From Parafrankia sp. EUN1f (GTDB taxonomy: Bacteria > Actinomycetota > Actinomycetes > Frankiales > Frankiaceae): a DNA stretch of 64,000 bases. The stretch is taken from assembly GCF_000177675.1 (NCBI RefSeq), contig NZ_ADGX01000002.1, positions 1 to 64,000 on the forward strand, read 5' to 3'. Position numbers and translations under genes: made by a program. The notes beneath the pieces were generated by a model that made no database searches, had not been told where the DNA came from, and worked only from the letters and a program-made list of their open reading frames with translations. This document shows, piece after piece, positions 9,697-64,000 of the stretch; position 1 is the first letter of the stretch; every line of letters begins with the position of its first letter.

Positions 9697-12600
9697 GTGG
9701 TGAGCGGGGGCCCGTACCGCTGGGACTTCTATGTCTCGTGCGCGGACGAAGACAAGGACAAGAAGGTGGGCGAGTGGGTCGCCTGGCATCTTGAGAATGG
9801 CGGCCGCTACAAGGTCCAGCGGCCGGAATGGGGTTCCTCAGGGGATTCTTTGCCTGCGGGAACGGACTGGTCCAGCCGGGTCAAGGACGCCGTCCGTGAG
9901 TCCCGTATCACCGTAGCTCTGGTTTCCGACGCGTATCTCACACAAGTGCTCCGCGCGGTGTCGGATGCCTTCGACGCCGACCCTGATGGTGCGACGGGCA
10001 GGCTGCTGCCTGTCCGTATTGAGGACTGCCCGCCGACCGGACTACTCGCCGGGATCATCCCCGTGAACCTGACCAACCTCCTGAGAACCCAGGAGACCTA
10101 CCTGTCACAGGAGGAGATAGAAGAGGAGAAGAGGAAGAGGGAGGCGGACGCGCGCGATCTGCTCTTCAAGGCCGCGAGCCAGGTCGCCGCGAAGAGCCCT
10201 GCCCGGCCGACGGTCCCGCCGCAGCTACCCGGTCGGCGTATGAGCGGGAGTGGGGCCGCTGCGGGAGCGCCCCACCAGCCGGCCCCCAAGCCGGTGGTGT
10301 GGCTACCCGCGCTGGTCGGAACCGAGGTGCGGCGACCGGAGTTGGCTGAGCGCCTCGTCGGAATGCTGACCGCCGAGAGCGAGGAGCCGCTGCGGGTGGT
10401 CGCCCTGCACGGCGGGCCCGGATTCGGCAAGACGACCCTGGCGAAGCTCGTCTGCCACCGCGACGATGTCCGGGCTGCCTTTCCCGGCGGGCTGCTGTGG
10501 ACCAGCCTCGGCCAGGACCATGGCCAGCTCACCGGCAAGATCAACGCTTTGGTCGTGCGACTGGCGCAGGAGCTGGGCCGAGGTAGCCAGGAGCCACTCC
10601 CATCAGAGCCGGAGCAGGCCGGGATGCGGCTCGGTGAACTGCTCGACGCCCTGCCCCCCGAGAGACGGACGCTGCTCGTCATCGACGACGTCTGGTCGGC
10701 CGCGCAGCTCGGGCCGTTCCTGTCTGGTGGCTCGCGCTGCACCAGACTGGTGACCACCCGAGACCAGCGGACCCTCACTGGTGACCCTTCGGTGGTCTGG
10801 ATCGACATGATGCGCCAGGCCGAAGCGCGGGAGCTGCTGGTCGGGGCGGCGCCAGATCTGCCGGCCACGGTCGCGGACCGCCTCGCCAGGCTTTGTGGCA
10901 GCTGGCCCCTCCTGCTGGACCTGGCGGCCAAGAACCTCAGACGCCGGGTCACCGGGGGGGCGCCGGCCACCGAGGCCGCCGAAGAGCTGATCAAAGGGCT
11001 TGAGGATGCGGGAGTCGTGGCATTCGACGACCCGGTGGGCGACGAGAAAACGCGTGACCGTGCGGTCGAGGCAACCGTCGAGGCGAGTCTGCGGCTCCTG
11101 AACCCGCCGGGCTCGGCCAGGGGACATCTGCTGGACCGCTTTCTCGAGCTGGCCGTGTTCCCCGCGGAAACGGCCATCGACCTCGCTGTGCTCGAGAAGC
11201 TGTGGGGCCACACGGCAGGCTGGGGCGCTTGGCAGGTTCGCCAGTTCCGCGACGTCCTCGTGGACCTTTCTCTCCTCGTTCCTGCTGGGAAGGGCGATCT
11301 CGCCAACCCGGCCGGGTCCCCATGGCTGCACGACGTACTCCACAGGTATCTGGATCGCCGCATCGGGAAGACACTTCCCGGCCTGCATCGTCGCCTTCTG
11401 GAGGCCTTCCGCCGTGACCTGCCGGCCGCGGAGGGGCGGACGGCGTGGTGGCACCTGAGTGACACCCCGGGCAGCGACTACCTGGTCACGCACCTCATCT
11501 ACCATCTTCTCGCCGCACTCCAGACCGATGAGGCGGCCGCCGTCGCCACGGACCCTCGGTGGATCGAGGTCACCCTCCGCCGCACCAGCTCCACCATGAC
11601 CGCTGAACACGACCTGGCCAGCGTCGGCACCGGCCACGCCGTCATCCTCGCGCGCGCGCTCGCCCAGAACGCCCATGTCGTCGCCGGGCCGGCGCTGCCC
11701 GGCGGCGTTGGCCCCACCCTCGCCGCCACCCTCGCAGCCGTCCCCACCCTCGCCTCGAGCGCGGATGAGTACTGCGCGACGATCCCTCGTCCCTGTCTCG
11801 GCCTCGTCTGGTCCACCCAACCGGCCCAGCACGCCCTTCTGCGGACCATTCGCTCGGGGGCGGGCGGATCGGTGAACGCGGTGGCGTTCTCGGCCGACGG
11901 CCGGCTGCTCGCCGCCGGCGGCGGTGACGGGACGGTGCGGCTGTGGAGTCCGGCTACCGGCACCGAACTGCCCGCCTCCCTCGCCCATGGTGAGCCGGTG
12001 AGCACCCTGGCCGGTGCCCCCGCCGGGCAGGTGATCGCTGTCGGCGGCACCGGCGGTGCGGTGCGCCTGTGGGATCCGGTTGCCAGGACGAACGAGGTCC
12101 TCGCCGGTCACGAGCGTGGCGTTACCGCGGTGGCGTTCTCGCCCGACGGCAAACTGCTCGTCACCGCCGGCTACGACGAGAAGGTGCGGCTGCGGGACCT
12201 GGCGGCCAACGTCGAGAAGCCCGCGCTGGTCGGGCTTGACGGCTGGGTGAACGCGGTGGCGTTCTCACCCGACGGCAAGCTGCTCGCCACGGCCGGCTAC
12301 GACGGGACCGTGCGGTTGTGGAACCCGGCGACCGGCGAGAGACAGCCGACCTCCGCCGATCACCGGGACGCGGTCAACGCCGTGGCCTACGCCACCGATG
12401 GCCATCTGATCGCCTTCGGCGGCGCTGACGGCTCCGTGCGGCTCTGGGATCCGGCGATGGAGACGAACAGCCAGGCGCTCGCTGGCGCCGAGGGCAGTGT
12501 CGCCGCCGTGGCGTTCTCGCCGGATGGCAGCCTCCTCGCGGCCAGCGGCGACCGGAAGGTGCGGCTTTGGGAACCCGAAGCCGGCGCCGACCCGATCACC

Positions 12601-13608
12601 ACCCTTGCCGGCCACAGCCTCGGCGTCGCCGCCGTGGCGTTCTCGCCGGACGGCAGTCTCCTCGCCTCAGGCGGCGCCGAGGGGACCGTCCGGCTGTGGG
12701 ACCCGCGGGCCAGCGCCGCCCGTGACCCGGTCGCCGGCCTCGGCGACTGGATGACAGCCGTGGCGTTCTCGCGACAAGGGCTGCTCGCTACCGGCGGCGC
12801 CGACGGGGCGGTGCAGCTGTGGGACCCGGTCCGCGGCACCCCGATCAGGACGCCCTTCACCGGCCATTGCGACATGGTGACCGCCGTGGCGTTCTCACCC
12901 GACGGCCAGTTCCTCGCCGCGGCTGGTCGTGATCAGGCGATCCTGTGGGACCGCGAGAATGGCGGCGAACCGGTCGCGACCCTTGCCGGCCCCGGTAGAG
13001 GTGAATGGGTGACCGCCGTGGCGTTCGATCCTGACGGCCGGTTCCTCGCCGTGGCTGGTCGTGATCAGGCGATCCTGTGGGATCGCGAGAATCGTGGCGG
13101 CCCGGTCGCGACCTTCGCCGTCGGCGATGAATGGGTGACCGCCGTGGGGTTCTCGCCCGACGGGCAGCTCCTCGCCACTGCCAGCAGCGATCGGACGATT
13201 CGGCTGTGGGACCCGGCGGACGCCACCGAACCGACGAGGACCATCGACGGTCACGGCCACGGTGTCACCGCAATGGCGTTCTCGCCCGATGGCAGTCTGC
13301 TGGCCACCGCAGACCAGGACGCGACAGTGCGGCTGTGGGATCCCGAGGGAGATGGCGGGCCGATCACCCTCGCCGGTCACACGGACTGGGTGACCGCTGT
13401 GGCGTTCTCACCCGACGGGCGGTATCTCGCCACCGCGAGCAGAGACCAGACAGTGCGGCTGTGGGACAAGGGAGAGTGGGAGGCCGCCGGGGCCAGGACG
13501 TCGTTGCGGCTCGGGGTAGCCGTCACGGCACTCGCCTGGCACGACGACTCCCTCTGCTGCGCGACCGAACTCGGTCTGTGGCTTCTGCGGTGCCACCGTC
13601 TGCGGTGA
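9697..13608 (+). CDS. TIR-NB-ARC-WD40 STAND NTPase
   Basis: A 1303-residue sensor-type protein. The N-terminal TIR-like domain (about 7-130) starts WDFYVSCADEDKDKK. A charged helix, EEIEEEKRKREADARDLL, links it to an NB-ARC ATPase with P-loop GGPGFGKTT (239-247), Walker B LLVIDDVW (326-333), the TTRD sensor motif and a GSWPLLLDLAA motif. About 14 WD40 repeats (residues 720-1300) follow, enough for two seven-bladed propellers. The TIR lacks the catalytic glutamate: the equivalent of Glu324 in the upstream protein is Ser89 (LRAVSDAF). It is therefore more likely an interaction module than an NADase. Two GTG codons (9697, 9700) can serve as the start. Plant NLR-like layout and neighbours suggest the threat-sensing component of a defence cassette. 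Confidence 0.9.
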   Translation: MVSGGPYRWDFYVSCADEDKDKKVGEWVAWHLENGGRYKVQRPEWGSSGDSLPAGTDWSSRVKDAVRESRITVALVSDAYLTQVLRAVSDAFDADPDGATGRLLPVRIEDCPPTGLLAGIIPVNLTNLLRTQETYLSQEEIEEEKRKREADARDLLFKAASQVAAKSPARPTVPPQLPGRRMSGSGAAAGAPHQPAPKPVVWLPALVGTEVRRPELAERLVGMLTAESEEPLRVVALHGGPGFGKTTLAKLVCHRDDVRAAFPGGLLWTSLGQDHGQLTGKINALVVRLAQELGRGSQEPLPSEPEQAGMRLGELLDALPPERRTLLVIDDVWSAAQLGPFLSGGSRCTRLVTTRDQRTLTGDPSVVWIDMMRQAEARELLVGAAPDLPATVADRLARLCGSWPLLLDLAAKNLRRRVTGGAPATEAAEELIKGLEDAGVVAFDDPVGDEKTRDRAVEATVEASLRLLNPPGSARGHLLDRFLELAVFPAETAIDLAVLEKLWGHTAGWGAWQVRQFRDVLVDLSLLVPAGKGDLANPAGSPWLHDVLHRYLDRRIGKTLPGLHRRLLEAFRRDLPAAEGRTAWWHLSDTPGSDYLVTHLIYHLLAALQTDEAAAVATDPRWIEVTLRRTSSTMTAEHDLASVGTGHAVILARALAQNAHVVAGPALPGGVGPTLAATLAAVPTLASSADEYCATIPRPCLGLVWSTQPAQHALLRTIRSGAGGSVNAVAFSADGRLLAAGGGDGTVRLWSPATGTELPASLAHGEPVSTLAGAPAGQVIAVGGTGGAVRLWDPVARTNEVLAGHERGVTAVAFSPDGKLLVTAGYDEKVRLRDLAANVEKPALVGLDGWVNAVAFSPDGKLLATAGYDGTVRLWNPATGERQPTSADHRDAVNAVAYATDGHLIAFGGADGSVRLWDPAMETNSQALAGAEGSVAAVAFSPDGSLLAASGDRKVRLWEPEAGADPITTLAGHSLGVAAVAFSPDGSLLASGGAEGTVRLWDPRASAARDPVAGLGDWMTAVAFSRQGLLATGGADGAVQLWDPVRGTPIRTPFTGHCDMVTAVAFSPDGQFLAAAGRDQAILWDRENGGEPVATLAGPGRGEWVTAVAFDPDGRFLAVAGRDQAILWDRENRGGPVATFAVGDEWVTAVGFSPDGQLLATASSDRTIRLWDPADATEPTRTIDGHGHGVTAMAFSPDGSLLATADQDATVRLWDPEGDGGPITLAGHTDWVTAVAFSPDGRYLATASRDQTVRLWDKGEWEAAGARTSLRLGVAVTALAWHDDSLCCATELGLWLLRCHRLR

Positions 13609-13784
13609 CCTCCAGCTGGAACCGATCCGCGTGCGCCGGGCCGGTCGTCGGGGCCCGCGGCCGACGCGGCGTCAGCGGTGCCGTGGGGTGCGCCGGCCAC
13701 CAGGCCCTGCCGAAGAGGGAGTGAAAGCTCTAGATATTTGGTGTTATGGTGGGCGCCGTCGATCGAGCAGAGGGCGAGGCGCTC

Positions 13785-26237: not shown

Positions 26238-27401
26238 TCAGTGGACGTCGCGGCCGAGAAGGGCGACGACGGTGAACAGTGCGCCGGCGCCGCCTCCCGA
26301 GCACAGCGCGACCTGGGCGTCGGCGACCTGCAGCGGTCCGCAGGTGCCGCGCAGCTGCTCGACGCCGCGGATGACGCGCTGAAGCATCTGCGGTGCGGCT
26401 CCGGCGTGGCTGAACGACAGCGTGCCGCCGTCGGTGGTGACGGGGTGGCTGCCACCGATCGCGATGTGGCCGTCCTCGGCGAACGGGCCGCCCTCTCCCG
26501 GGCCGCAGAACCCGAACGCCTCCAGCTGGCGGATGATCTCGAACGAGAACGGGTCGTAGAGCTCCAGGACGTCGACGTCATCGCGGCACAGCCCGGAGGC
26601 GTCCAGCGCGAGTTCGAACGCACGCCCGCCGACCTGGCCGTTCACCAGGTCGCCGGACCGGCCGGCATGATCCCAGGCCGGTGGGAAGCGGTAGCTGGGC
26701 CCGAAGTGATCCGCGCCGCCGCCGAGCACCTGCACCGGCGGGTGGCGCAGGTCGGCGGCCCGCCGCGCGGTCGTCAGCAGCAGCGCGCAGCCGCCCTCGG
26801 ACGTCATCGAGCAGTCGAGCAGGTGGAAGGGGTCGGCGACCATCCGGGAGGCGAGCACGTCCGCGGCGGTGAACGGACCGCGGCCGGCGTACACGGCGGC
26901 CGGATTCGCATGCCCGTTGTTGCGGATCGTCGCCGCGACGGTGGCGAGCTGCTCGGGTGTCGTCCCATAGGTGATCATGTGGCGGCGGGCGACGAGCGCG
27001 AACTCGGCGGCGGTGAACAGCCCCCACGGGACGACGAACTCGTTCTCCGGCCGGGTCCACGGCGCGGTCGCGGCTCGCTCGGTGTAGATGCCCGCCTCGG
27101 CCGCGACCACCAGCACGGTGTCGGCCTGGCCGGCCTCGATCGCCGCGGCGGCCTCCAGCACCATCGAGATCCCGAACTGGCTGCCCTGCCAGCAGGGCCC
27201 GAGCCCGAGGTCGTACAGGAGCGCGGCCCCGTCGGCGCCGGCGGACAGACCGTCGACCGCGTCGAGTGGTACCCCCGCGTCAGCCAGGACGCCGGTCACG
27301 GCATCGAGCGTCAGAGTGCGGGAGGTCTCCTCCGGCAGCCGACGCGCCTGGATCGTGTTGTACACACCGGCGATCACCGCTGGTTCCCGGTGGCGGCTCA
27401 T
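26238..27401 (-). CDS. Thiolase-like lipid-transfer protein lacking the nucleophilic Cys
   Basis: A 387-residue thiolase superfamily protein. Core segments include VIAGVYNTIQARRLPEET, AGQADTVLVVAAEAGIYTE, APWTRPENEFVVPWGLFTAA, ELYDPFSFEIIRQLEAFGFC and the SHAGAAPQMLQ region. Aligning the helix before IEAGQAD with canonical thiolases puts Ser where the Cys nucleophile should be (GSQFGISM). Claisen-type thiolysis is therefore unlikely, but lyase activity with a DUF35 partner is possible. ATG at 27401 follows GGGAAG. A fragment of a close relative is found in the relic at 63303-63451. The PadR regulator lies upstream. Confidence 0.82.
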   Translation of the reverse strand: MSRHREPAVIAGVYNTIQARRLPEETSRTLTLDAVTGVLADAGVPLDAVDGLSAGADGAALLYDLGLGPCWQGSQFGISMVLEAAAAIEAGQADTVLVVAAEAGIYTERAATAPWTRPENEFVVPWGLFTAAEFALVARRHMITYGTTPEQLATVAATIRNNGHANPAAVYAGRGPFTAADVLASRMVADPFHLLDCSMTSEGGCALLLTTARRAADLRHPPVQVLGGGADHFGPSYRFPPAWDHAGRSGDLVNGQVGGRAFELALDASGLCRDDVDVLELYDPFSFEIIRQLEAFGFCGPGEGGPFAEDGHIAIGGSHPVTTDGGTLSFSHAGAAPQMLQRVIRGVEQLRGTCGPLQVADAQVALCSGGGAGALFTVVALLGRDVH

Positions 27402-28134: not shown

Positions 28135-30639
28135 TCATACGCCGGCCGGCCGGTGAGCGATGAGCCCGCGGTCCCGCAACGCCTGGATCTCGGCCGCGGA
28201 CAGTCCGAGCAGACCGCCGTAGACCTCTTCGTCATGCTGTCCGAACATCGGCGCGGCGCGGCGCAGCAGCGGCCCAGGGTGGCTCGCAAGGCGGAACGCG
28301 ACGCCGGGCATCGGGTGTTCGCCGACCACGGGGTGGTGCAGCGGCTCGAAGAAGCCTCGGGTGACATGCCGCGGACTCGTGCGCAGGTCGGCGGCGGGAA
28401 CGACGGGGGCGGCGGGCACACCGGCGGCGGTGAGTTCGGCCGCGGCGTCATCGCGGTCGCGGGGCGCGGCCCAGGCCGCGATCGCCGCGTCGATCCGGTC
28501 GTGGGCGCGGCGCCGGCCGGCGGCGGTGGCCAGGTCGTTCTCGGCTGCCAGGTCGCTCCCGGCTGCCAGGTCGGGACGTCCGAGCAGCTCGCGCAGCCGC
28601 TCCCAGGCGGTGTCGTCGGTTACGGCGATCGCGATCCAGTGGTCGGGTCCGGCGCAACGGTAGACGCCCTGCGGCGCGCCGACCGGTCCGCGGTTTCCGT
28701 CCCGGACGAGCTCGGCGCCGTTCGCCGTGTACTCGATGGTGAGCTCGGCGGCCACGTTGAGTACCGCCTCGACCATGGTGGCCTCGACGAGCGCACCGGT
28801 GCCGGTCCGGTCCCGCTCGGCGAGCGCGACCAGGGTCGCGAACGCGGCGTGCAGCCCGGCGATGGGGTCGCAGGCGCCACGTGGGATCAGTGGTGGGCCG
28901 TCCGCGGTGCCGGTCAGCCAGGCCATCCCGCTGGCCTGCTCCATCGTCTGGGCGAAGCCGGTCCGGTCACGCCAGGGGCCGTCCAGGCCGAAGGCGGGCA
29001 TCCGGGTCAGCACCGCGGCCGGGTTCGCGGCGCGGACGGTGTCCCAGCCCAGGCCCAGGTTCGGCAGGACGCGGGGCGAGAAGTTCTCGATGACGACGTC
29101 GCTGGCCGCGATCAGTCGGCGGGCGACGTCGAGGGCCTGAGGGTCGGTCAGCTCGAGGCTGATGCCGCGCTTGTTGGGGTTGGTGGCGAGGAACATCACG
29201 CCCCACTCCCACCAGTTCTCCTCCGACGGCGGTTTGCCGCCGGAGAAGCGCATCCCGTCCGGGCGGGACACTCCTTCGACCTTGATGACATCGGCGCCGA
29301 GGGAGCCGAGCAGCAGTGTCGCCGACGGCCCTGCCCAGAAGGCCGTCAGATCGAGCACCCGCAGATCCGCCAGCGGCAGCGGCCGTCCGCCCGCCGGCCC
29401 GGCATCGGCTGCTGGCCCGGCATCGCTCGCCGGGCCGGTACCACCCGCCGGGCCGGAAGCGCCCGCGGAAGCCGTGCGGGCCGGCCAGGCGACGGTTCCG
29501 GTGTGCTCGCCGAGGGTGGGCGCGGGCGCCGGCGGGCGGCCGCGGAACTGGCCGAAGCGATAGGGCGTCCGTGGCTGGAAGAAGCCCCCGCGCGGGTTCG
29601 GGATGAACACCTCGCGCGCGGTGAACTGGTCGATCCCGGTGACGGTGCGCGGTGAGCCGATCGGCGACGCCGGGATGCGCAGGGCGGCGGCGAGCTCGAT
29701 GATCTCCTCGGTGGTGTGCCGGGTGGTCCAGGCGTGCACCGCGGCGAGGAACTCCTCCCGGCGGGCGTAGCGGTTGGGAAGCCGTGCCAGGTCCTCGTCG
29801 GCGATCAGGTCGGGCCGGTCGATGAGGAGCAGGAAGTCCTGGAACTGCTGCGCGGTGACCGTGCAGAAGCCGACGAGCCCGTCCTGCGTCGGTTCGATGG
29901 ACGGCAGCTCCGGAACCCGGCTGGATGCCGCCGGGTTACCCGCCGCGGCGGGCGGTGTGCCCATGACCGTGGGGCCGACGACGCTGAGCCCGCCGAGGAT
30001 GACGGTCATGCAGTCCAGCATGGAGACGTCGACGAGATCACCGATGCCGTCACGGCGGGCGCCGCGCAGCGCGGCGAGCGCGACGACTGCCGCGTAGGCG
30101 CCGGTCGCCCACTCGCCGATCCGCCCGCCTGCCGCCAGCGGCGGGCCCTGCGGTGAGCCACGGCCGGCTGTCGACCCGCTCAGCGCCTGGAGCAGGAACT
30201 CGGTCACCGGCTGCTCCTGGTCCTCGCCGGTCGCCGTCAGCCCGAACGGCGTGATCGCGACGACCACTGCCTGAGGATGGGCGTCATGCAGGCTCCGGGC
30301 CAGCTCGGCGATGCGCGCTGCGGTGGGTTCGCCCGCGGCGGCGCAGCGCAGGCCGTCGCCGATGACGATGACGTCCGCCCTCGCCGCCAGGTCCGCGACC
30401 GGCGCGCCGGCGATATCCGCGACGACCGAGCGCTTCGAGGTGTTCAGGTACCGGAACAACGCGCTGTCGCTGTCGGCACGTGCGCCGGATGCGGACCAGC
30501 CGCGCATCGGGTCGCCGGCACCATGTTCGATCTTGACGACGTCGGCGCCGGCGTCCGCGAACATCTTCCCGAGGTAGGGCCCGGCGATGCCGGTGGCCAG
30601 CTCCAGCACGCGGACTCCACCGAGTGGGTGGCCAGCCAT
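28135..30639 (-). CDS. Fused double CaiB/BaiF (family III) CoA transferase
   Basis: An 834-residue protein with two complete family III CoA-transferase domains (about 1-385 and 420-834). A Gly/Ala/Pro-rich linker containing PASDAGPAADAGPAGG joins them. Domain 1 begins VRVLELATGIAGPYLGKMFA and domain 2 LRVLDLTAFWAGPSATLLLG. The catalytic Asp position reads SMLDCM in domain 1 but TMVEAV in domain 2, so Glu replaces Asp in the second half. Normal members are about 400 residues and form interlocked dimers, so the fusion may be a single-chain version with one altered site. An 18-bp repeat (GSDLA-ENDLA) also duplicates in domain 2. GGAG precedes the ATG at 30639. Confidence 0.9.
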   Translation of the reverse strand: MAGHPLGGVRVLELATGIAGPYLGKMFADAGADVVKIEHGAGDPMRGWSASGARADSDSALFRYLNTSKRSVVADIAGAPVADLAARADVIVIGDGLRCAAAGEPTAARIAELARSLHDAHPQAVVVAITPFGLTATGEDQEQPVTEFLLQALSGSTAGRGSPQGPPLAAGGRIGEWATGAYAAVVALAALRGARRDGIGDLVDVSMLDCMTVILGGLSVVGPTVMGTPPAAAGNPAASSRVPELPSIEPTQDGLVGFCTVTAQQFQDFLLLIDRPDLIADEDLARLPNRYARREEFLAAVHAWTTRHTTEEIIELAAALRIPASPIGSPRTVTGIDQFTAREVFIPNPRGGFFQPRTPYRFGQFRGRPPAPAPTLGEHTGTVAWPARTASAGASGPAGGTGPASDAGPAADAGPAGGRPLPLADLRVLDLTAFWAGPSATLLLGSLGADVIKVEGVSRPDGMRFSGGKPPSEENWWEWGVMFLATNPNKRGISLELTDPQALDVARRLIAASDVVIENFSPRVLPNLGLGWDTVRAANPAAVLTRMPAFGLDGPWRDRTGFAQTMEQASGMAWLTGTADGPPLIPRGACDPIAGLHAAFATLVALAERDRTGTGALVEATMVEAVLNVAAELTIEYTANGAELVRDGNRGPVGAPQGVYRCAGPDHWIAIAVTDDTAWERLRELLGRPDLAAGSDLAAENDLATAAGRRRAHDRIDAAIAAWAAPRDRDDAAAELTAAGVPAAPVVPAADLRTSPRHVTRGFFEPLHHPVVGEHPMPGVAFRLASHPGPLLRRAAPMFGQHDEEVYGGLLGLSAAEIQALRDRGLIAHRPAGV

Positions 30640-30722
30640 GGATGCTCCGTCCTTCCAGTCGGAAACGTCGCCCTTCGGGACGTCCCGACCTGCCGACCAC
30701 CCGAGGTCGGAAACCGTCACGG

Positions 30723-32003
30723 TCAGCTCCGCGGGCGGGCGGTCAGGCGCGCCCAGGCGTCGCGGTCACGCTGGTCGGCCAGCCGGCCGACGTGGGTGAC
30801 CACATCGACGTCGCCGGCCTCGGCGCGCAGAGCGCCGGCGGTGCAGCGCTCTCGCGACCGGTGCCGGAACGGGTCGAACTGGTAGTGCCGCATCGCGTTC
30901 TCGTGAGTGATCTTGTTCACGGCGTCTTCCGGCAGGCCGCCGAGGTTCTCCAGCACGTCCTCCGGAGCGTGGGGCCAGTTCGAGTCGGAGTGCGGGAAGT
31001 CCGACTCCCAGCACAGGTTGTCGAGCTCGAACCAGTCGAGCAGGCGGGCACCGACGCGGTCGCTGATGAAACAGGTCAGGATGTGCTTGCGGAAGATGTC
31101 GATCGGGCCGTCCATACCGGCCGGGAAGCTTGGCCGGGCCCACGCGGAATGCCGGCGGCGGACGTGTTCGGACCGCCAGAGGAAGTACGGGATCCAGCCG
31201 ACATCCCCTTCGGTGAGGGAGAAACGCAGGTCCGGGAAGTCCGCCCAGAACTCCGCCCAGACCAGTTCCAGCAGCGAGTAGGACGACATCAGTGACGAGG
31301 CTGCGATGTTCACGCTCGGCGGGGCGTCGGACGAGAACATGGGCGCCCTGGACGAGGAACCGACGTGCAGGCACAGCACGGTTCCCGTGTCGCTGGCGGC
31401 GCGGAACAGCGGATGCCAGTAGTCGGTGTGGATGCTCGGCATCGACAGCGCCTCGGGATTCTCCGAGAAGGTCACGGCGTGGCAGCCCTTGGCGGCGAGC
31501 CGGTGAATTTCCCTGGCCGCCTCGTTGACGTCGAACAGCGGCAGTATCCCGCACGGGATGAACCGGTCCGGGTAGGCGCCGCACCACTCGTCCACGTGCC
31601 AGTCGTTGTACGCCCTGATCATGACGAGGTTGACGTCGCGGTCGGGGCCCTGATTGAGGACCTGGCCGGAGAACCCGGTCCAGTTCGGGAAGTTCAGCCC
31701 GGCGAGCTGCCCGCCGGCGTTCATGTCGCGGACCCGCTCATGCACGTCGTAGCAGCCTGGACGCATCTCGTCGTAGCGGCTCGCGTCGATGTTGAACATC
31801 TCCGGAGGCTTGCCGGCCACCGCGTTCAGCCCGAGGTTGCGACCGCGCCGATCGCCGTAATACCACTGCTGCGCGCCGCTGTCCTCCTCGACGACCCGGG
31901 GTGCCAGTTCCCTGAACTTCGCCGGGACGTGCGCGTCGAACATGGTGGGGGGCTCGGCGATGTGGTCGTCCACGCTGATGAGAATCAGATCGTCGACCTG
32001 CAT
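30723..32003 (-). CDS. Amidohydrolase family protein
   Basis: A 426-residue TIM-barrel amidohydrolase (Amidohydro_2 type). The metal-site pattern is D-x-H (ISVDDHIAEPP), His in LCLHVGSSSRAP, Glu in SLTEGDVGWIP and Asp in ESDFPHSDSNWPHA. These enzymes hydrolyse or decarboxylate small carbonyl compounds; substrates in this subgroup are unknown. AGGAG precedes the ATG at 32003. It is very similar in layout to the proteins at 41538 and 63448, which also stand next to DUF35 and thiolase genes. The DUF35 gene is 63 bases upstream on the same strand. Confidence 0.9.
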   Translation of the reverse strand: MQVDDLILISVDDHIAEPPTMFDAHVPAKFRELAPRVVEEDSGAQQWYYGDRRGRNLGLNAVAGKPPEMFNIDASRYDEMRPGCYDVHERVRDMNAGGQLAGLNFPNWTGFSGQVLNQGPDRDVNLVMIRAYNDWHVDEWCGAYPDRFIPCGILPLFDVNEAAREIHRLAAKGCHAVTFSENPEALSMPSIHTDYWHPLFRAASDTGTVLCLHVGSSSRAPMFSSDAPPSVNIAASSLMSSYSLLELVWAEFWADFPDLRFSLTEGDVGWIPYFLWRSEHVRRRHSAWARPSFPAGMDGPIDIFRKHILTCFISDRVGARLLDWFELDNLCWESDFPHSDSNWPHAPEDVLENLGGLPEDAVNKITHENAMRHYQFDPFRHRSRERCTAGALRAEAGDVDVVTHVGRLADQRDRDAWARLTARPRS

Positions 32004-32066: not shown

Positions 32067-32627
32067 TCACGCTGCGTGGGCGGGCGCGAAGTAGGGGAGG
32101 GACGTCCCGGGTTCGATCTCGTGGAACACGACCCGCAGCCGCAGGTCGGCCCGGATCGCGGCGACATCCAGACCGACGAGGCAGGTCATCAGCTGGTAGC
32201 CCTCGTCCAGGGTGACGATCGCGGGAGCGTAGGGGGTCCGGAACGCCGGGCTGGCCGGGCGGTGCACGACGGTCCAGCTGTAGAGGGTGCCGCCGCCGGC
32301 TGAGCGTTCCCAGCGCAGCGCCCGCGACAGGCAGCTTCGGCAGGCCACCGCCGGCGGGAAGCCCGGACGTCCGCAGTCCGAACACCGCTGGAACAGCAGA
32401 TCCCCCCGCGCGCAGCCGACCCAGAAAGGCTCGGTCAGCGGCGTGCGTGGGGCGAACGGTATGCCCGCGGCGGCCGCGCGAAGCTCCCGAGCCCCATCTG
32501 TTGCGAGACTAATAGTCTCGCTGTGAGCGTGCGTGGGGGCGGTCTTCTCTTCCCCCGTGCGTACCTGGCGCACCCGCGGGAGCGGGGCCGTGCCCGACTC
32601 CGCGGCGCCGGCTGAAGGCCCAATCAT
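32067..32627 (-). CDS. Zn-ribbon/OB-fold (DUF35) protein, start unclear
   Basis: The conserved part is clear: FAPRTPLTEPFWVGC, zinc ribbon cysteines in CSDC and CRSC, then the OB fold LYSWTVVHRPASPAFRTPY. Like other DUF35 proteins it should partner a thiolase-like enzyme. The start is a puzzle. The open frame runs to an ATG at 32627 with no clear ribosome site. The palindromic operator at 32503-32521 lies inside that extension. The related relic at 63252 starts with ATG exactly where this gene has ATA (32462), just before the Pro-Phe-Ala-Pro segment. GTG at 32573 is another option. The true protein may be shorter, around 131 residues. Confidence 0.75.
   Translation of the reverse strand: MIGPSAGAAESGTAPLPRVRQVRTGEEKTAPTHAHSETISLATDGARELRAAAAGIPFAPRTPLTEPFWVGCARGDLLFQRCSDCGRPGFPPAVACRSCLSRALRWERSAGGGTLYSWTVVHRPASPAFRTPYAPAIVTLDEGYQLMTCLVGLDVAAIRADLRLRVVFHEIEPGTSLPYFAPAHAA
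32503..32521. promoter_or_regulatory. GACTAATAGTC palindrome (site 1)
   Basis: GCGAGACT and AGTCTCGC are exact 8-bp inverted repeats around AAT. The same 11-base core recurs perfectly at 63203-63213 and, with one change, at 32744-32754. It lies just ahead of the conserved start region of the DUF35 gene, as does the site at 63196. Confidence 0.7.
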
Positions 32628-41537: not shown

Positions 41538-42692
41538 TCAGGCCTGCAGCAGACCGCGCAGGTTCGTTTCGGCGATCTTCACGGCGTCCGCGTCGGGCAC
41601 GTCCGCGAGTGCCTTCTCCAGGTAGGCGCGGTTGTTCGGCCACAGCCCGTCCCCGTGCGGGAAGTCGCCTTCGAACAGCAGGTTGTCGACCGGGACGTCG
41701 GCGAGGCTGCGCAGCGCGAACTGCTCGTCGACCAGGCAGACGTACATGTGCTCGGCGAACACCTCACGGGGCGACCGGTTGGCCTTGACGCCGGCCTGGC
41801 CGATGGAGATGTCCTGGCTCAGGCGGCCGTCGTGAAACGCCTTCTCCGCCCGCTCGAGAATGTACGGAATCCACCCGGCGCCGCCCTCGGAGAGGATGAC
41901 CTTCAGCCGGGGGAAGCGCTCCAGAATGCCGGCGAACAGCCAGTCGACGCCGGCCATCATCGAGTTCACGCCGTTGAGCGCGACGAGCACCGTCGGCGGG
42001 GCGTCCGCCGAGGTCGTGACAAGCCGGGACGAGCTGCCGATGTGCATGCAGACGGGAATGCCGGCCTCGTTCGCCACCGCCCACAGCGGATCCCAGTGGT
42101 CGGTGTGGACCGAGGGAAGTCCGAGCACGGTCGGGTTCTCCGAGAAGGCGATGGCCCGCGCGCCCTTGGCGAGCACCCGCTTCAGTTCCTCGACGGCCTT
42201 CTCGGCGTCGAACAGCGGGAGGATGACGGCGCCGAACAGCCGCTCGGGGTCGGTCGCGCACCATTCGTCGAGCAGGTAGTCGTTGTAGGTGCGCAGGCAG
42301 GCGAGCCCCAGCTCCAGGTCGGTGACGTTCAGGAAGAAGCGGTGCCCGGCGAACCGCGCGTAGTTCGGGAAGCAGAGCTGGCCCCACGTTCCGTCGACGT
42401 CCATGTCCTTAAGCCGCTCGACCGGGTCGTAGCAGCCGGGACGGATCTCGTCGAAGCGGGCGGTACCGGGCGCCGGCGGGTAGCCGGCCTCGGAGAAGCC
42501 GGGCAGCGCACGGCACGAGCCCATCGGGATGTAGGTGAGCTCGCCCTCGTAGAGCCAGGCCTGCCGGCCGTCGACCTCCACGATCTTCGGGCAGCCGTCG
42601 CGGTACTTCGCCGGGACGCGGTCGACCCACAGGTGGGCCGGTTCGATCAGATGGTCGTCCGCCGACATGATTCGGGTGGTCGTTGGCAACAT
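41538..42692 (-). CDS. Amidohydrolase family protein
   Basis: A 384-residue amidohydrolase of the same subgroup as the gene at 30723. IMSADDHLIEPAHLW supplies the D-x-H site, then VCMHIGSSSRLVTTS, LSEGGAGWIPY and FEGDFPHGDGLWPNN. Probable metal-dependent hydrolase or decarboxylase acting on a carbonyl intermediate. ATG at 42692 has AGGAG upstream. It is 46 bases downstream of a thiolase-like gene, which itself overlaps a DUF35 gene. The three form the second copy of the recurrent module. Confidence 0.9.
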   Translation of the reverse strand: MLPTTTRIMSADDHLIEPAHLWVDRVPAKYRDGCPKIVEVDGRQAWLYEGELTYIPMGSCRALPGFSEAGYPPAPGTARFDEIRPGCYDPVERLKDMDVDGTWGQLCFPNYARFAGHRFFLNVTDLELGLACLRTYNDYLLDEWCATDPERLFGAVILPLFDAEKAVEELKRVLAKGARAIAFSENPTVLGLPSVHTDHWDPLWAVANEAGIPVCMHIGSSSRLVTTSADAPPTVLVALNGVNSMMAGVDWLFAGILERFPRLKVILSEGGAGWIPYILERAEKAFHDGRLSQDISIGQAGVKANRSPREVFAEHMYVCLVDEQFALRSLADVPVDNLLFEGDFPHGDGLWPNNRAYLEKALADVPDADAVKIAETNLRGLLQA

Positions 42693-42738
42693 GTGCACTA
42701 CTCCTGTTCGCGACCGTGCCGCTGGTGGGGACGCACGC

Positions 42739-43914
42739 TCAGTGCGGTGCCCCGACGAGCAGGGACGAGGTGAACGACTCCGCGCCACTGGTGACGACGG
42801 CAAGCTGACGGGCGGTGGGCAGCTGGTGGGCGCCGGCCTCGCCGCGCAGCTGCAGGCAGGCCTCCAGCAGGCCGCCGTAGCCGTGCAGCCGCCCGCCGGA
42901 GAGCTGGCCACCGCCGGTGTTCAGTGGCAGATCGCCGGTGGGGCCGATCCGGTCGCCGCCCTCGATGAAGTCGAGCGCCTCGTAGCGGCCGCAGAACCCG
43001 AGGGCCTCCAGCCAGCGCAGTGCGTAGACCGAGAAGCCGTCGTAGACCTGCGCGAGGTCGACGTCGGCCGGTCTGAGGTCGGTCCGCTCCCACATCATGG
43101 CGGCGGACTCGTCGAAACCGGAGGCGGAGCCCATGGCCTCCAGCCGCAGCGCCCGACCGGGGTCCCCGGCCGCGGCCGCGTTCGAGACCACGAACGCCAC
43201 CGAACCGTCGACCGGGACGTCGCAGTCGTAGACACAGATCGGATCGGAGATCATCCGGGCGCCGAGGTACTGGTCGAGGGTGAGCGGATCGCGGTACACG
43301 GCGGCCTCGTTGCGGGCCGCGTAGGAGCGGGTGACGAGCGCGAGCGCGGCGTACTTCTCCCGGCTGGCGCCGGCCAGCTCGATGCGCCGCTGCATCTCCA
43401 TCGCCGCGTAGCAGGGGTAGCCGATCCCGAACGGCGTCGACCACTGGGTGAGCTCACGGCCGAAGCGCACCGGCTGGCCCTGGGTTCCGCCGCCGCCGAG
43501 CAGCGTCGCCGACCGGCTGCCGTACCCCTCCTGCGCGGTGGACTCCCACACCGTCCGGAAACACAGGACATGGGTCGCGAGCCCCGCGGCGACTGCCAGC
43601 ACGGCGTTGACGATCGAGCCGAGCTGGCCGGCGAGCTCGCCGCCGCCGGTGTGCCAGCGCAGGTTGAGCCCGAGCATCGCCCGGACGTCGTCGACACCGG
43701 CGCCGGTGATGCCGGGCGTCGACCAGAACGCGCCCGGGTAGGTCGAGACCCCGTCGATGTCGTCCGGCGTCAGCCCGGCGTCGGCGATCGCGGCCAGTGC
43801 GGCGTCCGCGGTGAGCACCCACGGGTCCACCCGCAGCCGACGGCCGATCGCCGACCGGCCGACCCCGGTGATCAGTGCCGAGTCCTCAGCCCGCCGGCCC
43901 TCACTCCCGCGCAT
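42739..43914 (-). CDS. Thiolase-like lipid-transfer protein
   Basis: A 391-residue thiolase superfamily protein: ALITGVGRSAIGRRLRVDP, VSTYPGAFWSTPG, VYDGFSVYALRWLEALGFCG and GGQLSGGRLHGYGGLLE. No Cys is seen at the nucleophile helix (GGGELAGQLGSIVNAVL). The C-terminal motif reads GGRLHGYG, with His retained. Its 5' end overlaps the DUF35 gene by 14 bases, a strong sign of a stable two-protein complex. A lyase or retro-aldol role is more likely than thiolysis. The amidohydrolase follows. Confidence 0.84.
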   Translation of the reverse strand: MRGSEGRRAEDSALITGVGRSAIGRRLRVDPWVLTADAALAAIADAGLTPDDIDGVSTYPGAFWSTPGITGAGVDDVRAMLGLNLRWHTGGGELAGQLGSIVNAVLAVAAGLATHVLCFRTVWESTAQEGYGSRSATLLGGGGTQGQPVRFGRELTQWSTPFGIGYPCYAAMEMQRRIELAGASREKYAALALVTRSYAARNEAAVYRDPLTLDQYLGARMISDPICVYDCDVPVDGSVAFVVSNAAAAGDPGRALRLEAMGSASGFDESAAMMWERTDLRPADVDLAQVYDGFSVYALRWLEALGFCGRYEALDFIEGGDRIGPTGDLPLNTGGGQLSGGRLHGYGGLLEACLQLRGEAGAHQLPTARQLAVVTSGAESFTSSLLVGAPH

Positions 43915-44425
43915 CGCCGGCTCCTCGAAGCTCGCTGGCCGGGCTCGCCGGACGGAACAGCGGGATGTATGCGTCGCCGGCCTGGCTGAAACACACCCGC
44001 ACCGGCAGACCGACGTGGATCCGCTCCGGCGGGCAGTCGACCACGTTGGTCAGCAGGCGCAGCCCGGGCTGCTCGACCAGCTCGACGTCCGCGACCAGAT
44101 ATGGCGGTGGCATGGAGGGAACCCACTGGTAGCGGTTCAGCGTCCATGACCACACCGTGCCCCGGCCGGACACCGGGTCGAACCCGACGTCGCGGCCCCG
44201 GCAGGCCGGGCAGACCGGCCGCGGCGGGTGCAGGTAGCGCCCGCAGTCACGGCAGTGCGCGATCCGCAGGACGCCGTCCGCGCCCGAGGTCCAGAACGGT
44301 GCCGTCCGTTCCGTCAGCGGGGGCGCCACCCGGCTGAACCCCTCGACCCACGACTGCCCGGGTTCCACTTCGCCGGCCGCGGTGTGCTCGGCGGCCTCGA
44401 CGTGCTCGGCCTGCCTCGTCGTCAT
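43901..44425 (-). CDS. Zn-ribbon/OB-fold (DUF35) protein
   Basis: A 174-residue DUF35 protein. The helical leader PPLTERTAPFW precedes a zinc ribbon with Cys58, Cys61, Cys72 and Cys75, then the OB fold VWSWTLNRYQWVPSMPPPY. The expected role is acyl-CoA binding partner for the overlapping thiolase-like protein. The ATG at 44425 overlaps the P450 TGA (ATGA), and its own stop lies inside the thiolase gene start. P450, DUF35 and thiolase are thus translationally coupled. Confidence 0.88.
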   Translation of the reverse strand: MTTRQAEHVEAAEHTAAGEVEPGQSWVEGFSRVAPPLTERTAPFWTSGADGVLRIAHCRDCGRYLHPPRPVCPACRGRDVGFDPVSGRGTVWSWTLNRYQWVPSMPPPYLVADVELVEQPGLRLLTNVVDCPPERIHVGLPVRVCFSQAGDAYIPLFRPASPASELRGAGDARE

Positions 44426-56257: not shown

Positions 56258-58360
56258 TCAGCTGGGCATCAGCTCGCGTGGGAGCCCGAGTATGCGCTCG
56301 GCGATCACGTTGAGCTGGATTTCGACCGTTCCCCCACCGATCAGCTGCGGCGGCACGGTGAGATAACGCCCCGCCGCCTGGCCGCCGGGGCCGTCGGCGA
56401 TGGCCGCGGCCGGCCCGGTCCATCGCAGCGCGCGCTCGGCGATCTGGGTCACCAGCGTGGCCGAGGCGATCTTGGAGACGCTCGACTCAGCGCCGGGTCG
56501 GAGCCCCGACAGGCTGCGCAACGTGGTGCGCAGGGCCAGCGCGGCCAGGGCGTGGGCCATCGCGAACGTCGCGCCCACGTCCCGCCGGACGTCGCCCGGG
56601 TCCGCGGCGAGTGCCTGGCCGGCGGCGAGATCGAGCAGGTCGGTCGGGATGTGCTGCATCCCGCTGATGCTCACCCGCTCGTTGCCGAGCGTGGTCCGCG
56701 CGAGCCCCCACCCGCGGTTGACCTCTCCGACGAGCCGGTCGTCCGGCACGAACACGTCGTTGAAGAAGACCTCGTTGAACAGGTAGCCGCCATTCGCCTC
56801 GCGTAGCGGCCGGATCTCCAGACCGGGCGAGGTCATGTCGACGAGGAAGTAGGAGATTCCCCTGTGCTTCGGAGCCGCCGGATCGGTCCGGGCCAGGCAG
56901 ATGCCGAAGTGCGCCTCGTGCGCGTTCGACGTCCAGACCTTCTGGCCGTTGAGCCGCCAGCCACCTTCGACCTTCTCGGCGCGGGTCGACAGGGCGGCGA
57001 GGTCGGAGCCGGCGCCGGGCTCGCTGAACAGCTGGCACCACACGAGCTCGCCGCGCAGCGTCGGCGGGACGAAGAAGTCCTTCTGCTCCTCGGTGCCGTA
57101 GGCGAGGATGGTGGGCAGCGCCCAGTCTCCGATGATCAGCCTTGGTGGCGCCACCTCGGCCCGCTCGTACTCCTGCTGGATCACCAACTGCTCGACCGGG
57201 GTCGCCGCGATCCCGTAGGGCTTCGGGTAGTGGGGCACCACCAGGCCCTCGGCCGCGAGCCGCTCGCGCCGGGCCGGGCCTTCGGCCGGCAGCGCCGCAA
57301 CCTCGCCGAGCAGCCCGGCGATGCGGGCGCGGAAGGCGGGGTCCGCGGCGGAGAGATCGGCGCTGAAGTCACGGGACGTGCCGTGCACCAGTGCGCCCAG
57401 CCGGTGCTCCCAGCCGGAGACGGGACCGAGCAGGCTCTCCAGCGTCATCGCCCGGCGCCAGTACAGGTGCGCGTCGTGCTCCCAGGTGTAGCCGATCCCG
57501 CCCAGCAGCGTGATCGTCTCCAGCCCGATCCCGGTCGCGCGGGGCAGGCACGCGACAGCCGCGCCGGCCGCGGCCACCGCGAGCTGATCGTCGCCCTGCT
57601 CCATCGCCCGCGCCGCGTCCCACGCCGCGGCGGACATCGTCTGCACGTCGACGAACAGCCGGGCGCACTTGTGCTTGATCGCCTGGAAGGACCCCACCGG
57701 GCGGCCGAACTGCTCGCGCACCTTCACGTAGTCGACGCCGGTTGTCACGCACCACCGCACCAGCCCCACAGCCTCGGCGGCGAACAGCACGGCCGCCACC
57801 GCGCGGACCTGCTCGGCTTCGACCTCGACGACCTGGTCGGGGTGGACGGCCACCTCGGCCAGGGTCACCGTGCCGACGGCCCGGGTCTGGTCGACGGGCG
57901 CGGCCGCGACCGCCACCACGGCGGGCCCCGGCCGGGCGGTGAACCAGAGCTGGCCACCGCCCGGGGTGACCGCCCCGAGGAGCAGCAGCGTCGCCTCCGG
58001 CGCGCCGAGGATGGGGCCGGTCGTCCCGCTGACCCGGTAGGCGCCGTCCGCCGTGGGGGCCGCCGTCAGGCCCGCGGTGGTCAGCGCGCTCGGCAGCAGC
58101 GGCCCGGGGAGCAGGCTGCTCGCCGTCTCCTCGAGCACCACGGCGAGGGTGACGAAACCGGCGTCGGCCCCGCCGAGGTCCGCCGGCAGGTGCAGCGAGG
58201 TGAGGCCCTGCTCCACGATGCCCGGCCAGCAGTCCGGCGCCGCGCCGGCGGTCCAGCGCGCCAGGCCTTCCCGCACCTGCTCGGACGACGAATACCGGGA
58301 CACGAACCCGCGGACCGAATCGGCCAGCGCCTTGTGATCCTCGTCGAGACCGATGGACAC
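56258..58360 (-). CDS. Fused double acyl-CoA dehydrogenase
   Basis: A 700-residue protein built like the gene at 24011. The N-terminal half contains VDYVKVREQFGRPVGSFQAI and LGGIGYTWEHDAHLYWRRA. The C-terminal half has VWCQLFSEPGAGSDLAA, LNGQKVWTSNAHEAHFG, LGNERVSISGMQHI and GGTVEIQLNVIAERILGLP. Expected reaction is flavin-dependent alpha-beta desaturation of a bulky acyl-CoA. GTG at 58360 follows AGGAGGG. It is flanked by a CoA ligase and an amidohydrolase on the same strand. Confidence 0.9.
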   Translation of the reverse strand: MSIGLDEDHKALADSVRGFVSRYSSSEQVREGLARWTAGAAPDCWPGIVEQGLTSLHLPADLGGADAGFVTLAVVLEETASSLLPGPLLPSALTTAGLTAAPTADGAYRVSGTTGPILGAPEATLLLLGAVTPGGGQLWFTARPGPAVVAVAAAPVDQTRAVGTVTLAEVAVHPDQVVEVEAEQVRAVAAVLFAAEAVGLVRWCVTTGVDYVKVREQFGRPVGSFQAIKHKCARLFVDVQTMSAAAWDAARAMEQGDDQLAVAAAGAAVACLPRATGIGLETITLLGGIGYTWEHDAHLYWRRAMTLESLLGPVSGWEHRLGALVHGTSRDFSADLSAADPAFRARIAGLLGEVAALPAEGPARRERLAAEGLVVPHYPKPYGIAATPVEQLVIQQEYERAEVAPPRLIIGDWALPTILAYGTEEQKDFFVPPTLRGELVWCQLFSEPGAGSDLAALSTRAEKVEGGWRLNGQKVWTSNAHEAHFGICLARTDPAAPKHRGISYFLVDMTSPGLEIRPLREANGGYLFNEVFFNDVFVPDDRLVGEVNRGWGLARTTLGNERVSISGMQHIPTDLLDLAAGQALAADPGDVRRDVGATFAMAHALAALALRTTLRSLSGLRPGAESSVSKIASATLVTQIAERALRWTGPAAAIADGPGGQAAGRYLTVPPQLIGGGTVEIQLNVIAERILGLPRELMPS

Positions 58361-62631: not shown

Positions 62632-63195
62632 ATCTCCTCCGTTTCGGACGGATTGCGTCTATATCTGTAGACCGTGGTCCGCGTGCGCGCAAGGGGGAGT
62701 CGTCGCTCCCCGCGCCGGCCAGCCGTGGGCGCGCCGGCCACGAGCTGCGGGAAGGCGCGGGAGACGATCAGGGCCGGCGCCGGGGGTCTGACGGGTGAAT
62801 CAGCCGACAAGGCGCGTCCAAACGCCCTCCGCGTCGTTCTCCTCGACGAATGAGCCCGTGCTGCTGCCCAGGAGCGTGTTTTGGTACGTGAACCTCGTCG
62901 CCGTCGATGACTTCGACGCGGCGATCAGCTCGGTGACCTCCGCCGTGCAGACCGTGGGGCCTGCCTGGCCGGCAGCCCACCACCTGACGGCCGCGCCGGG
63001 GCGGACCTCGACGACCTGCAGGCTGGAAGACTATTGAGCTCCAAACGGGAGTGTGGTGAAGTGGATCGTCCACACTAGCCGGTGTCTTCGTGGCGGCTTC
63101 ACGATGCCCAGTGCAGCGTGGTCTGCCGAGCCGCAGGCCGAAGGAGGCGGTGAGGGGTGCCGTGAGCGATTCATCTCTCGCAGTTCCGTCACCAT
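62632..63195. other. Gene-poor region with no confident gene
   Basis: This stretch separates the alcohol dehydrogenase from the relic at 63252. A short reverse-strand reading (roughly 63030 to 62795) encodes LQVVEVRPGAAVRWW and RFTYQNTLL-type sequence. It might be the end of a decayed SRPBCC-like gene, but it has a stop just upstream and no clear start. Nothing else convincing was seen. Confidence 0.5.
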
Positions 63196-63220
63196 CCGCT
63201 CGGACTAATAGTCCGAGCGG
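63196..63220. promoter_or_regulatory. GACTAATAGTC palindrome (site 3)
   Basis: CCGCTCGGACT and AGTCCGAGCGG are exact 11-bp inverted repeats around AAT. The core GACTAATAGTC is identical to the site at 32507-32517. It lies about 30 bases before the DUF35-like start at 63252. Confidence 0.75.
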
Positions 63221-63251
63221 TGATGCATGGTTGTGACCCCAGGCGGCCGGG

Positions 63252-63451
63252 ATGTCGTTCGCCCCGCGCGCGCCGCTGACCGAACCGTTCTGGGCGGCGT
63301 GTGCCGGGCGGCCACCGCGCCCTGGACCCGGCCGGAGAACGAGTTCGTCATCCCCTGGGGAATGTTCACCGCCGCCGAGGTCGCGCTGTGCACCGCGGGC
63401 GGGGCCGGCGCGCTCTTCCTCACCCTCGTTCTCCTGGGAAGGCTCTCATGA
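63252..63451 (+). pseudogene. Chimeric relic of DUF35 and thiolase-like genes
   Basis: The first 50 bases encode MSFAPRAPLTEPFWAACA, the N-terminus of a DUF35 protein like that at 32067 (FAPRTPLTEPFWVGC). Near 63302 the homology jumps, in another frame, to a thiolase-like piece: RAATAPWTRPENEFVIPW, then GMFTAAEVAL. This matches the gene at 26238 (RPENEFVVPWGLFTAAE). It then jumps in frame to the C-terminal LCTAGGAGALF, which matches LCSGGGAGALF there. Two large deletions have thus collapsed a DUF35-thiolase pair. The relic's TGA overlaps the ATG of the amidohydrolase. Confidence 0.72.
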
Positions 63452-64000
63452 GCAGCACCGCAACGAGCAGCACCGCAACGAGCAGCACCGCAACGAGCAG
63501 CACCGCCGCGAGCAGCACCGCCGCGAGCGGCGCCGGCCTGCCCACCGGCCTCGACCCCGCGCTGTTCTTACCCGAGCCCGGCCCGCGGGCCGTCCGGTAC
63601 ACCGTCATCTCCGTCGACGATCACGTTGTCGAGCCTCCGCACCTGTTCGAGGGGCGGGTTCCGGCACGGTTCGCCGACGCTGCCCCACGCATCGTCGAAA
63701 CCGACCAGGGCCACCAGGTGTGGCACTTCGAGGACCAGACCTTCACCCAGGTCGGGATGAACGCCGTCGCCGGGCGGCGACCGGAGACGGTGAAGCTGGA
63801 GCCGTTGCGGTTCGAGCACATGCGTCCCGGCTGCTACGACATCGACGCCAGGGTCCGGGACATGGACGTCAACGGGATCTGGGCGTCGGTGAACTTCCCC
63901 TCGCAGATCTCCGGCTTCTGCGGCCGGGTGTTCTTCGGTGCCCGGGACCGGGATCTCGGCCTCGCCTGCGTGCGTGCGTGGAACGACTGGCTCCACGAGG
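63448..64000 (+). CDS. Amidohydrolase family protein, partial
   Basis: At least 184 residues, running off the window. A Ser/Thr/Ala leader made of five 15-bp repeats is followed by VISVDDHVVEPPHLFEGRVP and MRPGCYDIDARVRDMDVNG. These match the 30723 protein (ISVDDHIAEPP, MRPGCYDVHERVRDM). ATG at 63448 overlaps the relic stop and has GGGAAGG upstream. A rare TTA codon is at 63568-63570. It is the third amidohydrolase of the module. Confidence 0.88.
   Translation, partial: MSSTATSSTATSSTATSSTAASSTAASGAGLPTGLDPALFLPEPGPRAVRYTVISVDDHVVEPPHLFEGRVPARFADAAPRIVETDQGHQVWHFEDQTFTQVGMNAVAGRRPETVKLEPLRFEHMRPGCYDIDARVRDMDVNGIWASVNFPSQISGFCGRVFFGARDRDLGLACVRAWNDWLHE
63451..63525. repeat. Five-copy 15-bp in-frame tandem repeat
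   Basis: AGCAGCACCGCAACG is repeated three times and AGCAGCACCGCCGCG twice. Each unit adds SSTAT or SSTAA to the amidohydrolase N-terminus without changing frame. The unit length is the same as that of the array at 1-330. Confidence 0.95.

What the first reader, a model, noticed from the sequence alone, without database searches (positions are those of the whole stretch)
63252..63451. Composite relic fusing a DUF35 start to two pieces of a thiolase
Seen: sequence matching a DUF35 N-terminus, then two separate thiolase segments joined with large deletions and one frame change. Its promoter palindrome and coupling to the amidohydrolase survive. Inferred: module decay after duplication or transfer, with the amidohydrolase retained.
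Basis: seen in the sequence. Interest (0 to 1): 0.5.

Follow-up and report, generated by a model that had tools for sequence, protein, structure and literature searches.

The report
Deletion scar of a redundant operon
A short stretch of a soil actinobacterium's chromosome is the collapsed remains of a second copy of a breakdown-pathway gene cluster; a sister species deleted the same copy separately and also kept only the start region and the last genes, so the find is real but of an ordinary kind.

Summary
The relic is real. Window 63162-63451 joins the 5' end of a DUF35 gene, 84 bp of thiolase codons 109-136 and the thiolase 3' end, directly before an intact amidohydrolase (AMH1, 63448-64731). 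All seven fetched Pseudofrankia-group loci carry one intact colinear cluster DUF35-AMH2-CaiB-PadR-thiolase-AMH1-aldolase, so the scar is that cluster's front and tail with the middle deleted. The same genome keeps the five missing genes, intact, in a second cluster at 26.2-32.6 kb.

The closest genome (G003) has a different deletion at the same locus, so the losses were at least partly independent. There the second cluster is also a scar (only PadR intact), and its working copy sits elsewhere. The DUF35 5' part differs from its sister mostly by synonymous changes, so decay is recent.

The palindrome lies 46 nt inside the gene, not upstream. A stop codon sits at 63234-63236. The ATGA overlap survives, but no frame from the native start reaches it. 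The scar is not a recent duplicate of the 26-kb cluster: it groups with the Pseudofrankia type (A+B clade rejected, AU p 0.0004).

Ordinary in kind; unusually well resolved.

The parts
63162..63303 (+). 5' end of a DUF35 (zf-ChsH2/OB) gene, GTG start; remnant with nonsense codon TGA at 63234-63236
   Evidence: Start at fixed 46-nt spacing to the palindrome centre shared with all 7 Pseudofrankia-group copies and the sister locus; codons AAGMSFAPRAPLTEPFWAACA match intact DUF35
63141..63147 (+). Shine-Dalgarno-like AAGGAGG of the DUF35 remnant
   Evidence: seen in sequence; also in the sister
63196..63220 (+). Perfect 25-nt palindrome (12-bp arms, one central base) inside the DUF35 codons; likely operator of the cluster's PadR-like regulator (inferred)
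   Evidence: SGACTANTAGTCS occurs once in each of 10 genomes that have the cluster and 0 times in the 5 that lack it; conserved at this place with varying codons
63305..63388 (+). Thiolase piece 1 (codons about 109-136 of the intact thiolase), frame shifted against the DUF35 remnant
63374..63451 (+). Thiolase C-terminus with stop codon; Pseudofrankia-type residues TAGGAGALFLTLVLLGR; overlaps piece 1 by a repeat at the deletion point
63448..64000 (+). AMH1, intact amidohydrolase (Amidohydro_2); runs on to contig position 64731, followed by a class II aldolase (64746-65480)
   Evidence: dS 0.143, dN 0.031 against the sister
32067..32627 (-). Cluster A: intact DUF35 (zf-ChsH2 + OB_ChsH2_C); palindrome of this copy at about 32503-32521
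30723..32003 (-). Cluster A: AMH2, amidohydrolase, 37% identical to AMH1
28135..30720 (-). Cluster A: tandem CoA-transferase family III (CaiB), 861 aa
27445..28116 (-). Cluster A: PadR-like regulator; the only gene of the cluster left whole at the matching site of the sister
26238..27401 (-). Cluster A: intact thiolase, nearest full-length relative within this genome

Best explanation
Window 63162-63451 is the deletion scar of a second copy ('B') of a catabolic operon DUF35-AMH2-CaiB-PadR-thiolase-AMH1-aldolase. Because another copy ('A', 26.2-32.6 kb) supplies DUF35 to thiolase, those genes of B were redundant. They were removed by illegitimate deletions that fused the front of the operon (ribosome site, start, palindrome) to its tail. 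What stayed is the non-redundant pair AMH1-aldolase, under the old front end. Shown: the scar's anatomy, the intact operon in relatives, a different deletion at the same locus in the sister, and selection on AMH1 and aldolase. Inferred: that B once held all seven genes in this lineage, that redundancy was the reason for loss, that the palindrome is the PadR-like protein's operator, and that it still controls AMH1. A and B are separately diverged (transferred or anciently duplicated) versions, not a recent duplication.
For: Pieces match the intact genes in order and sense. Seven of 7 Pseudofrankia-group loci fetched have the colinear seven-gene cluster with the thiolase just before AMH1. The sister has DUF35 codons beyond the window's breakpoint joined straight to the thiolase C-terminus, lacks thiolase piece 1 and has its own 1-nt deletion, so the two deletions differ. 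The DUF35 5' part differs from the sister at 8 of 47 codons: 6 synonymous, 1 missense, 1 nonsense (Fisher p 0.001 to 0.01 by how the nonsense codon is counted), so it was coding until after the two species split. AMH1 and aldolase dN/dS are 0.21 and 0.14. B groups with the Pseudofrankia type at 97/96 and A+B as one clade is rejected, p-AU 0.0004. Of the other 5 genus-g1 genomes searched, only G003 has an AMH1 over 80% or a strong thiolase match. argH puts G000 nearer genus g2 (87%) than g7 (78-81%), while the operon genes are nearer g7, which points to transfer. In G003 cluster A is itself a scar keeping only PadR whole, with junctions at short shared sequences, and its intact cluster lies elsewhere.
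Against: No copy of B with the middle intact was found in genus g1, so its full gene content there is inferred from Pseudofrankia. The relic tree rests on 192 columns (99 filled for the sister). argH is a single marker. No remnant of AMH1 or aldolase follows the thiolase of cluster A in either genome, so reciprocal loss from two complete copies is not shown: A may never have had them. The palindrome of the sister's B copy carries two mismatches, so control of AMH1 by it is not conserved. No empty site for the sister's third copy could be shown.
Confidence: 0.87

Rival explanations
1. Recent duplication of cluster A within this lineage, followed by decay of the copy at 63 kb.
For: Both are in one window, and cluster A's thiolase is 89% identical in DNA to piece 1.
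Against: The seven Pseudofrankia-group copies are about as close in piece 1 (85-91%), and B's thiolase end is 84-86% to G028, G033 and G034 but 74% to A. B shares the 46-nt start spacing and the residues TAGGAGALFL-LVLLGR with that group, A does not. A+B clade rejected, p-AU 0.0004.
Confidence: 0.07
2. The scar keeps a job: it is a leader that holds the operator and ribosome sites, so that AMH1-aldolase stays under the operon's own control. The deletions would be adaptive operon shortening, repeated in two species. (This can be true together with the best explanation.)
For: Both species kept the same two ends. The palindrome is perfect in the window with 12-bp arms. The GGGAAGG ribosome site of AMH1 lies in the thiolase remnant. 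A frame from ATG 63227 ends at the ATGA overlap in both species.
Against: The two frames encode different peptides (74 and 50 aa). The sister's palindrome has two mismatches. Loss of the redundant middle alone predicts the same remains.
Confidence: 0.3
3. A functional small fusion protein (74-aa frame 63227-63451).
For: An open frame exists.
Against: No Pfam or NCBIfam match at E 0.01. The sister frame has a different middle, length and deletion. The DUF35 codons are read out of frame in it.
Confidence: 0.03
4. Assembly artefact or chance similarity.
For: Draft genome of 396 contigs.
Against: The region is inside a 121-kb contig. The sister, assembled apart, has a like scar at the same place. 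E-values reach 3.6e-24.
Confidence: 0.01

Closest known systems
Intact DUF35-AMH2-CaiB-PadR-thiolase-AMH1-aldolase cluster of the Pseudofrankia group (L167-L173; named twins L059-L062)
   Same: Same gene ends in the same order; same start-to-palindrome spacing of 46 nt; same thiolase C-terminal residues; AMH1 84-88% identical
   Different: In the window the rest of DUF35, AMH2, CaiB, PadR and most of the thiolase are gone from this locus
Sal/Ltp2-type thiolase-fold retro-aldolases with DUF35 partners (PMC12329534, PMC11321319; listing and start of abstract seen only)
   Same: The intact cluster pairs a thiolase with a DUF35 protein (zf-ChsH2 + OB_ChsH2_C in Pfam); the thiolase matches PDB lipid-transfer and thiolase chains
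   Different: Substrate and reaction of this cluster unknown and not tested; the relic itself encodes neither protein
Displacement of genes by transferred homologues with decay of the resident copy ('xenologous gene displacement', 'gene displacement in situ'; terms found in papers listed, texts not read)
   Same: Two separately diverged versions of one operon in one genome, one of them decaying
   Different: Here the decaying copy keeps its non-redundant tail genes and its front end, and two sister species did so by different deletions

Membership tests
Pseudogene or deletion scar of the DUF35-thiolase operon | Collinear homology to intact genes | tested here: met
Pseudogene or deletion scar of the DUF35-thiolase operon | Frames broken (stop, frameshift, large deletions) | tested here: met
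   TGA 63234-63236, one frame change, thiolase codons 137 to about 361 missing, and everything between DUF35 codon ~73 and thiolase codon 109 missing
Pseudogene or deletion scar of the DUF35-thiolase operon | Intact orthologous locus in relatives | tested here: met
   7 of 7 Pseudofrankia-group loci that carry AMH1; none in genus g1
Pseudogene or deletion scar of the DUF35-thiolase operon | Composite not conserved as a protein | tested here: met
   sister has a different composite; no family match
Displacement by a transferred (xenologous) operon | Two versions not related by recent duplication | tested here: met
   p-AU 0.0004 on 192 columns; 46-nt spacing and residues
Displacement by a transferred (xenologous) operon | Direction and donor of transfer | tested here: inconclusive
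   operon genes discordant with argH, but one marker only; no empty site shown
PadR-regulated operon | PadR-like regulator in the cluster | tested here: met
   AphA structure 1yg2 at E 1.4e-5; Pfam PadR or Vir_act_alpha_C matches in 9 of 10 copies scanned, only one over the curated cut-off, none for the copy of G009
PadR-regulated operon | The palindrome is bound by that regulator | not testable with these tools
   only co-occurrence: 10 of 10 genomes with, 0 of 5 without

The most novel reading that the evidence does not exclude
In two sister species, different deletions collapsed the same redundant operon onto its own start region, so that a conserved intragenic operator for a PadR-like regulator now directly precedes AMH1-aldolase. 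The scar would be a selected regulatory leader, and repeated front-to-tail collapse a general way by which displaced operons keep their non-redundant genes under the original control. The sister's cluster-A scar, which kept only the regulator whole, would be the other half of the same process.
Probability: 0.28. Interest if true: 0.5.

Novelty: new member of a known kind. Interest (0 to 1): 0.33.

Why it matters
It is a datable, two-species example of how an operon is whittled down once another version of it is present: which parts go, which stay, and by what deletions. It also exposes a candidate operator, seen about once per genome, that sits inside the first gene of a PadR-like-regulated cluster, which a simple binding test could settle.

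Tried and rejected
Recent duplication of cluster A as source: rejected by the relic tree and shared residues. A first version of that tree (p-AU 0.056) had the window's thiolase end out of register by one base; it was corrected and only the latter is used. Reciprocal loss from two complete copies: no AMH1 or aldolase remnant after either cluster-A thiolase, so left open. Palindrome as an upstream promoter element: rejected, since it is intragenic. Vertical descent of A in both species: first doubted because dS of A genes to the sister's C7 copy is 0.47-0.66, against 0.07-0.23 for 40 syntenic genes of 46 listed. The reason turned out to be that the C7 copy is another locus and the syntenic one is a scar. 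Empty site for the C7 copy: its flanks lie on two contigs of the window's genome, so nothing can be said. An extra open frame at 62795-63037 gave no significant Pfam match (best E 0.16). Literature: no paper holding DUF35, thiolase and amidohydrolase together (this library only); searches gave listings and abstract starts only, no paper was opened.

Own errors: the aldolase query was in the wrong frame and was redone; the script stopped part-way and was redone; G033's extra thiolase (70%) on C98 has no other gene of the cluster nearby and was used only as an outgroup.

Full report
What is there. The best matches in the whole 9.35-Mb genome are in the same window: the intact thiolase at 26.2-27.4 kb (E 3.6e-24 for piece 1; 1e-6 for the end) and the intact DUF35 gene at 32.1-32.6 kb (E 1e-7), both on the minus strand. 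Neither composite frame matches any Pfam or NCBIfam model at E 0.01.

The intact form. The downstream amidohydrolase, AMH1, has orthologues of 82-88% identity in Frankiaceae. In all seven genus-g7 loci that carry it (G027, G028, G029, G030, G032, G033, G034; an eighth g7 genome, G031, has no strong match to AMH1 or the thiolase), the order is DUF35-AMH2-CaiB-PadR-thiolase-AMH1-class II aldolase on one strand within about 9 kb (DUF35 and AMH2 of G034). So the relic is the two ends of one operon. In the window's genome the five missing genes exist once more, intact, as cluster A (26.2-32.6 kb), which lacks AMH1 and aldolase. Outside Frankiaceae, 70 of the 75 other AMH1 relatives fetched show no DUF35-thiolase pair on the stretch held.

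Where the gene begins. In all seven g7 copies, a GTG, ATG or TTG lies exactly 46 nt before the centre of a conserved palindrome and in frame with DUF35, and so does GTG 63162 in the window and its counterpart in the sister. The two cluster-A type copies have no such start at 46 nt. The distance from palindrome to the conserved DUF35 codons varies between copies but keeps the frame. So the palindrome is inside the gene, and the DUF35 remnant starts at 63162, not 63252. The encoded residues at the palindrome vary (RTNSP, RTISP, GTTSP, GTISP, ETISL) while the symmetry is largely kept. The core SGACTANTAGTCS is found once in each of 10 genomes that have the cluster and not in the 5 without; the backward control gives 1-8 per genome. 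The cluster-A copy of the window has a perfect palindrome too, but with A and T at the flanking places, so it is not in that count. In F. gtarii the palindrome lies between the PadR-like gene and the thiolase. It is probably the operator of the co-encoded PadR-like protein (nearest solved relative AphA, E 1.4e-5); this is inference.

The sister. Of the five other genus-g1 genomes searched, only G003 has this locus. Along the window, 40 of 46 listed genes have their counterpart on G003 contig C8 with dS 0.07-0.23. At the relic, G003 keeps the DUF35 codons through GEL, which the window lacks, joined to the thiolase C-terminus. It lacks thiolase piece 1, which the window keeps, and has a private 1-nt deletion. 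So at least one deletion on each side happened after the two species split. The shared 5' DUF35 codons (63162-63302) differ at 8 of 47 codons: 6 synonymous, 1 missense, 1 nonsense. This fits a gene that was under selection until after the split. Both mismatches in the sister's palindrome are synonymous. AMH1 and aldolase remain constrained (dN/dS 0.21, 0.14).

A second scar. At the place of cluster A, G003 has only pieces: both ends of the neighbouring acyl-CoA-ligase-like gene (name from recall), a 66-bp scrap of CaiB, and a PadR-like gene of full length, 96% identical to the window's. Two junctions fall at shared sequence of 10-11 bp, one at 2 bp. G003's intact five-gene cluster lies on another contig, C7, at dS 0.47-0.66 from cluster A. 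Several versions of this operon have thus come and gone, each scar keeping a different part.

Origin of the two versions. On 192 aligned bases the B remnants fall with the Pseudofrankia type (97/96); holding A and B together as one clade costs 17.8 log units, p-AU 0.0004. B also shares the 46-nt spacing and thiolase residues TAGGAGALFL-LVLLGR with that group, whereas A has residues nearer to F. gtarii. In trees of the full genes, both A (thiolase, AMH2, CaiB, PadR) and B (AMH1, aldolase) stand beside g7 with F. gtarii outside, while argH puts G000 at 87% to g2 and 78-81% to g7. This suggests transfer from near Pseudofrankia, but argH is one marker, and an old duplication is not excluded.

How it works. 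Best reading: with DUF35 to thiolase supplied by another copy, the same genes in B were free to go. Deletions fused the front of the operon to its tail, leaving AMH1 and aldolase to be read from the old start region. AMH1 has its own ribosome site (GGGAAGG) in the thiolase remnant. Translational coupling from the native start no longer works in either species, though a frame from ATG 63227 still ends at the ATGA in both. Whether the front end still controls AMH1 is not known.

Verdict. It is a new, well-resolved example of a known process. The organism's name is not given by any search; that it is a Parafrankia-like strain is recall only.

Noticed in passing
G003:C8 about 300.7-302.6 kb (L218, L219); window 26.2-35.0 kb: In the sister genome the place of cluster A is a second composite scar: ends of an acyl-CoA-ligase-like gene, a 66-bp CaiB scrap and an intact PadR-like gene; the rest is deleted.
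   Followed up: yes
window 63196-63220; 32503-32521: Operon-specific palindrome with core GACTANTAGTC inside the DUF35 codons; its SGACTANTAGTCS form occurs once per genome in 10 of 10 genomes with the cluster.
   Followed up: partly
window 41544-44320 (-): Another DUF35-thiolase-amidohydrolase set (28-36% identical) in the same order within the window.
   Followed up: no
window 62841-63005: 165 bp absent from the sister, flanked by a 9-bp direct repeat CCTCGACGA: deletion there or insertion here; no family match to its frame.
   Followed up: partly
window 63451-63530: 15-bp tandem repeats encode a Ser/Thr/Ala-rich N-terminal extension of AMH1 that differs from the sister and is only partly matched in relatives.
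   Followed up: no
window 56258-58360 and about 4575-13745: An acyl-CoA-dehydrogenase-like frame of 700 aa and a stretch of about 9 kb (with a 1303-aa frame) have no counterpart at the syntenic place of the sister, where the gaps are about 0.2 and 1.2 kb.
   Followed up: no
window 28135-30720 (-): Tandem CoA-transferase family III protein of 861 aa, less conserved (76%) than most neighbours between cluster A and the sister's C7 copy.
   Followed up: no
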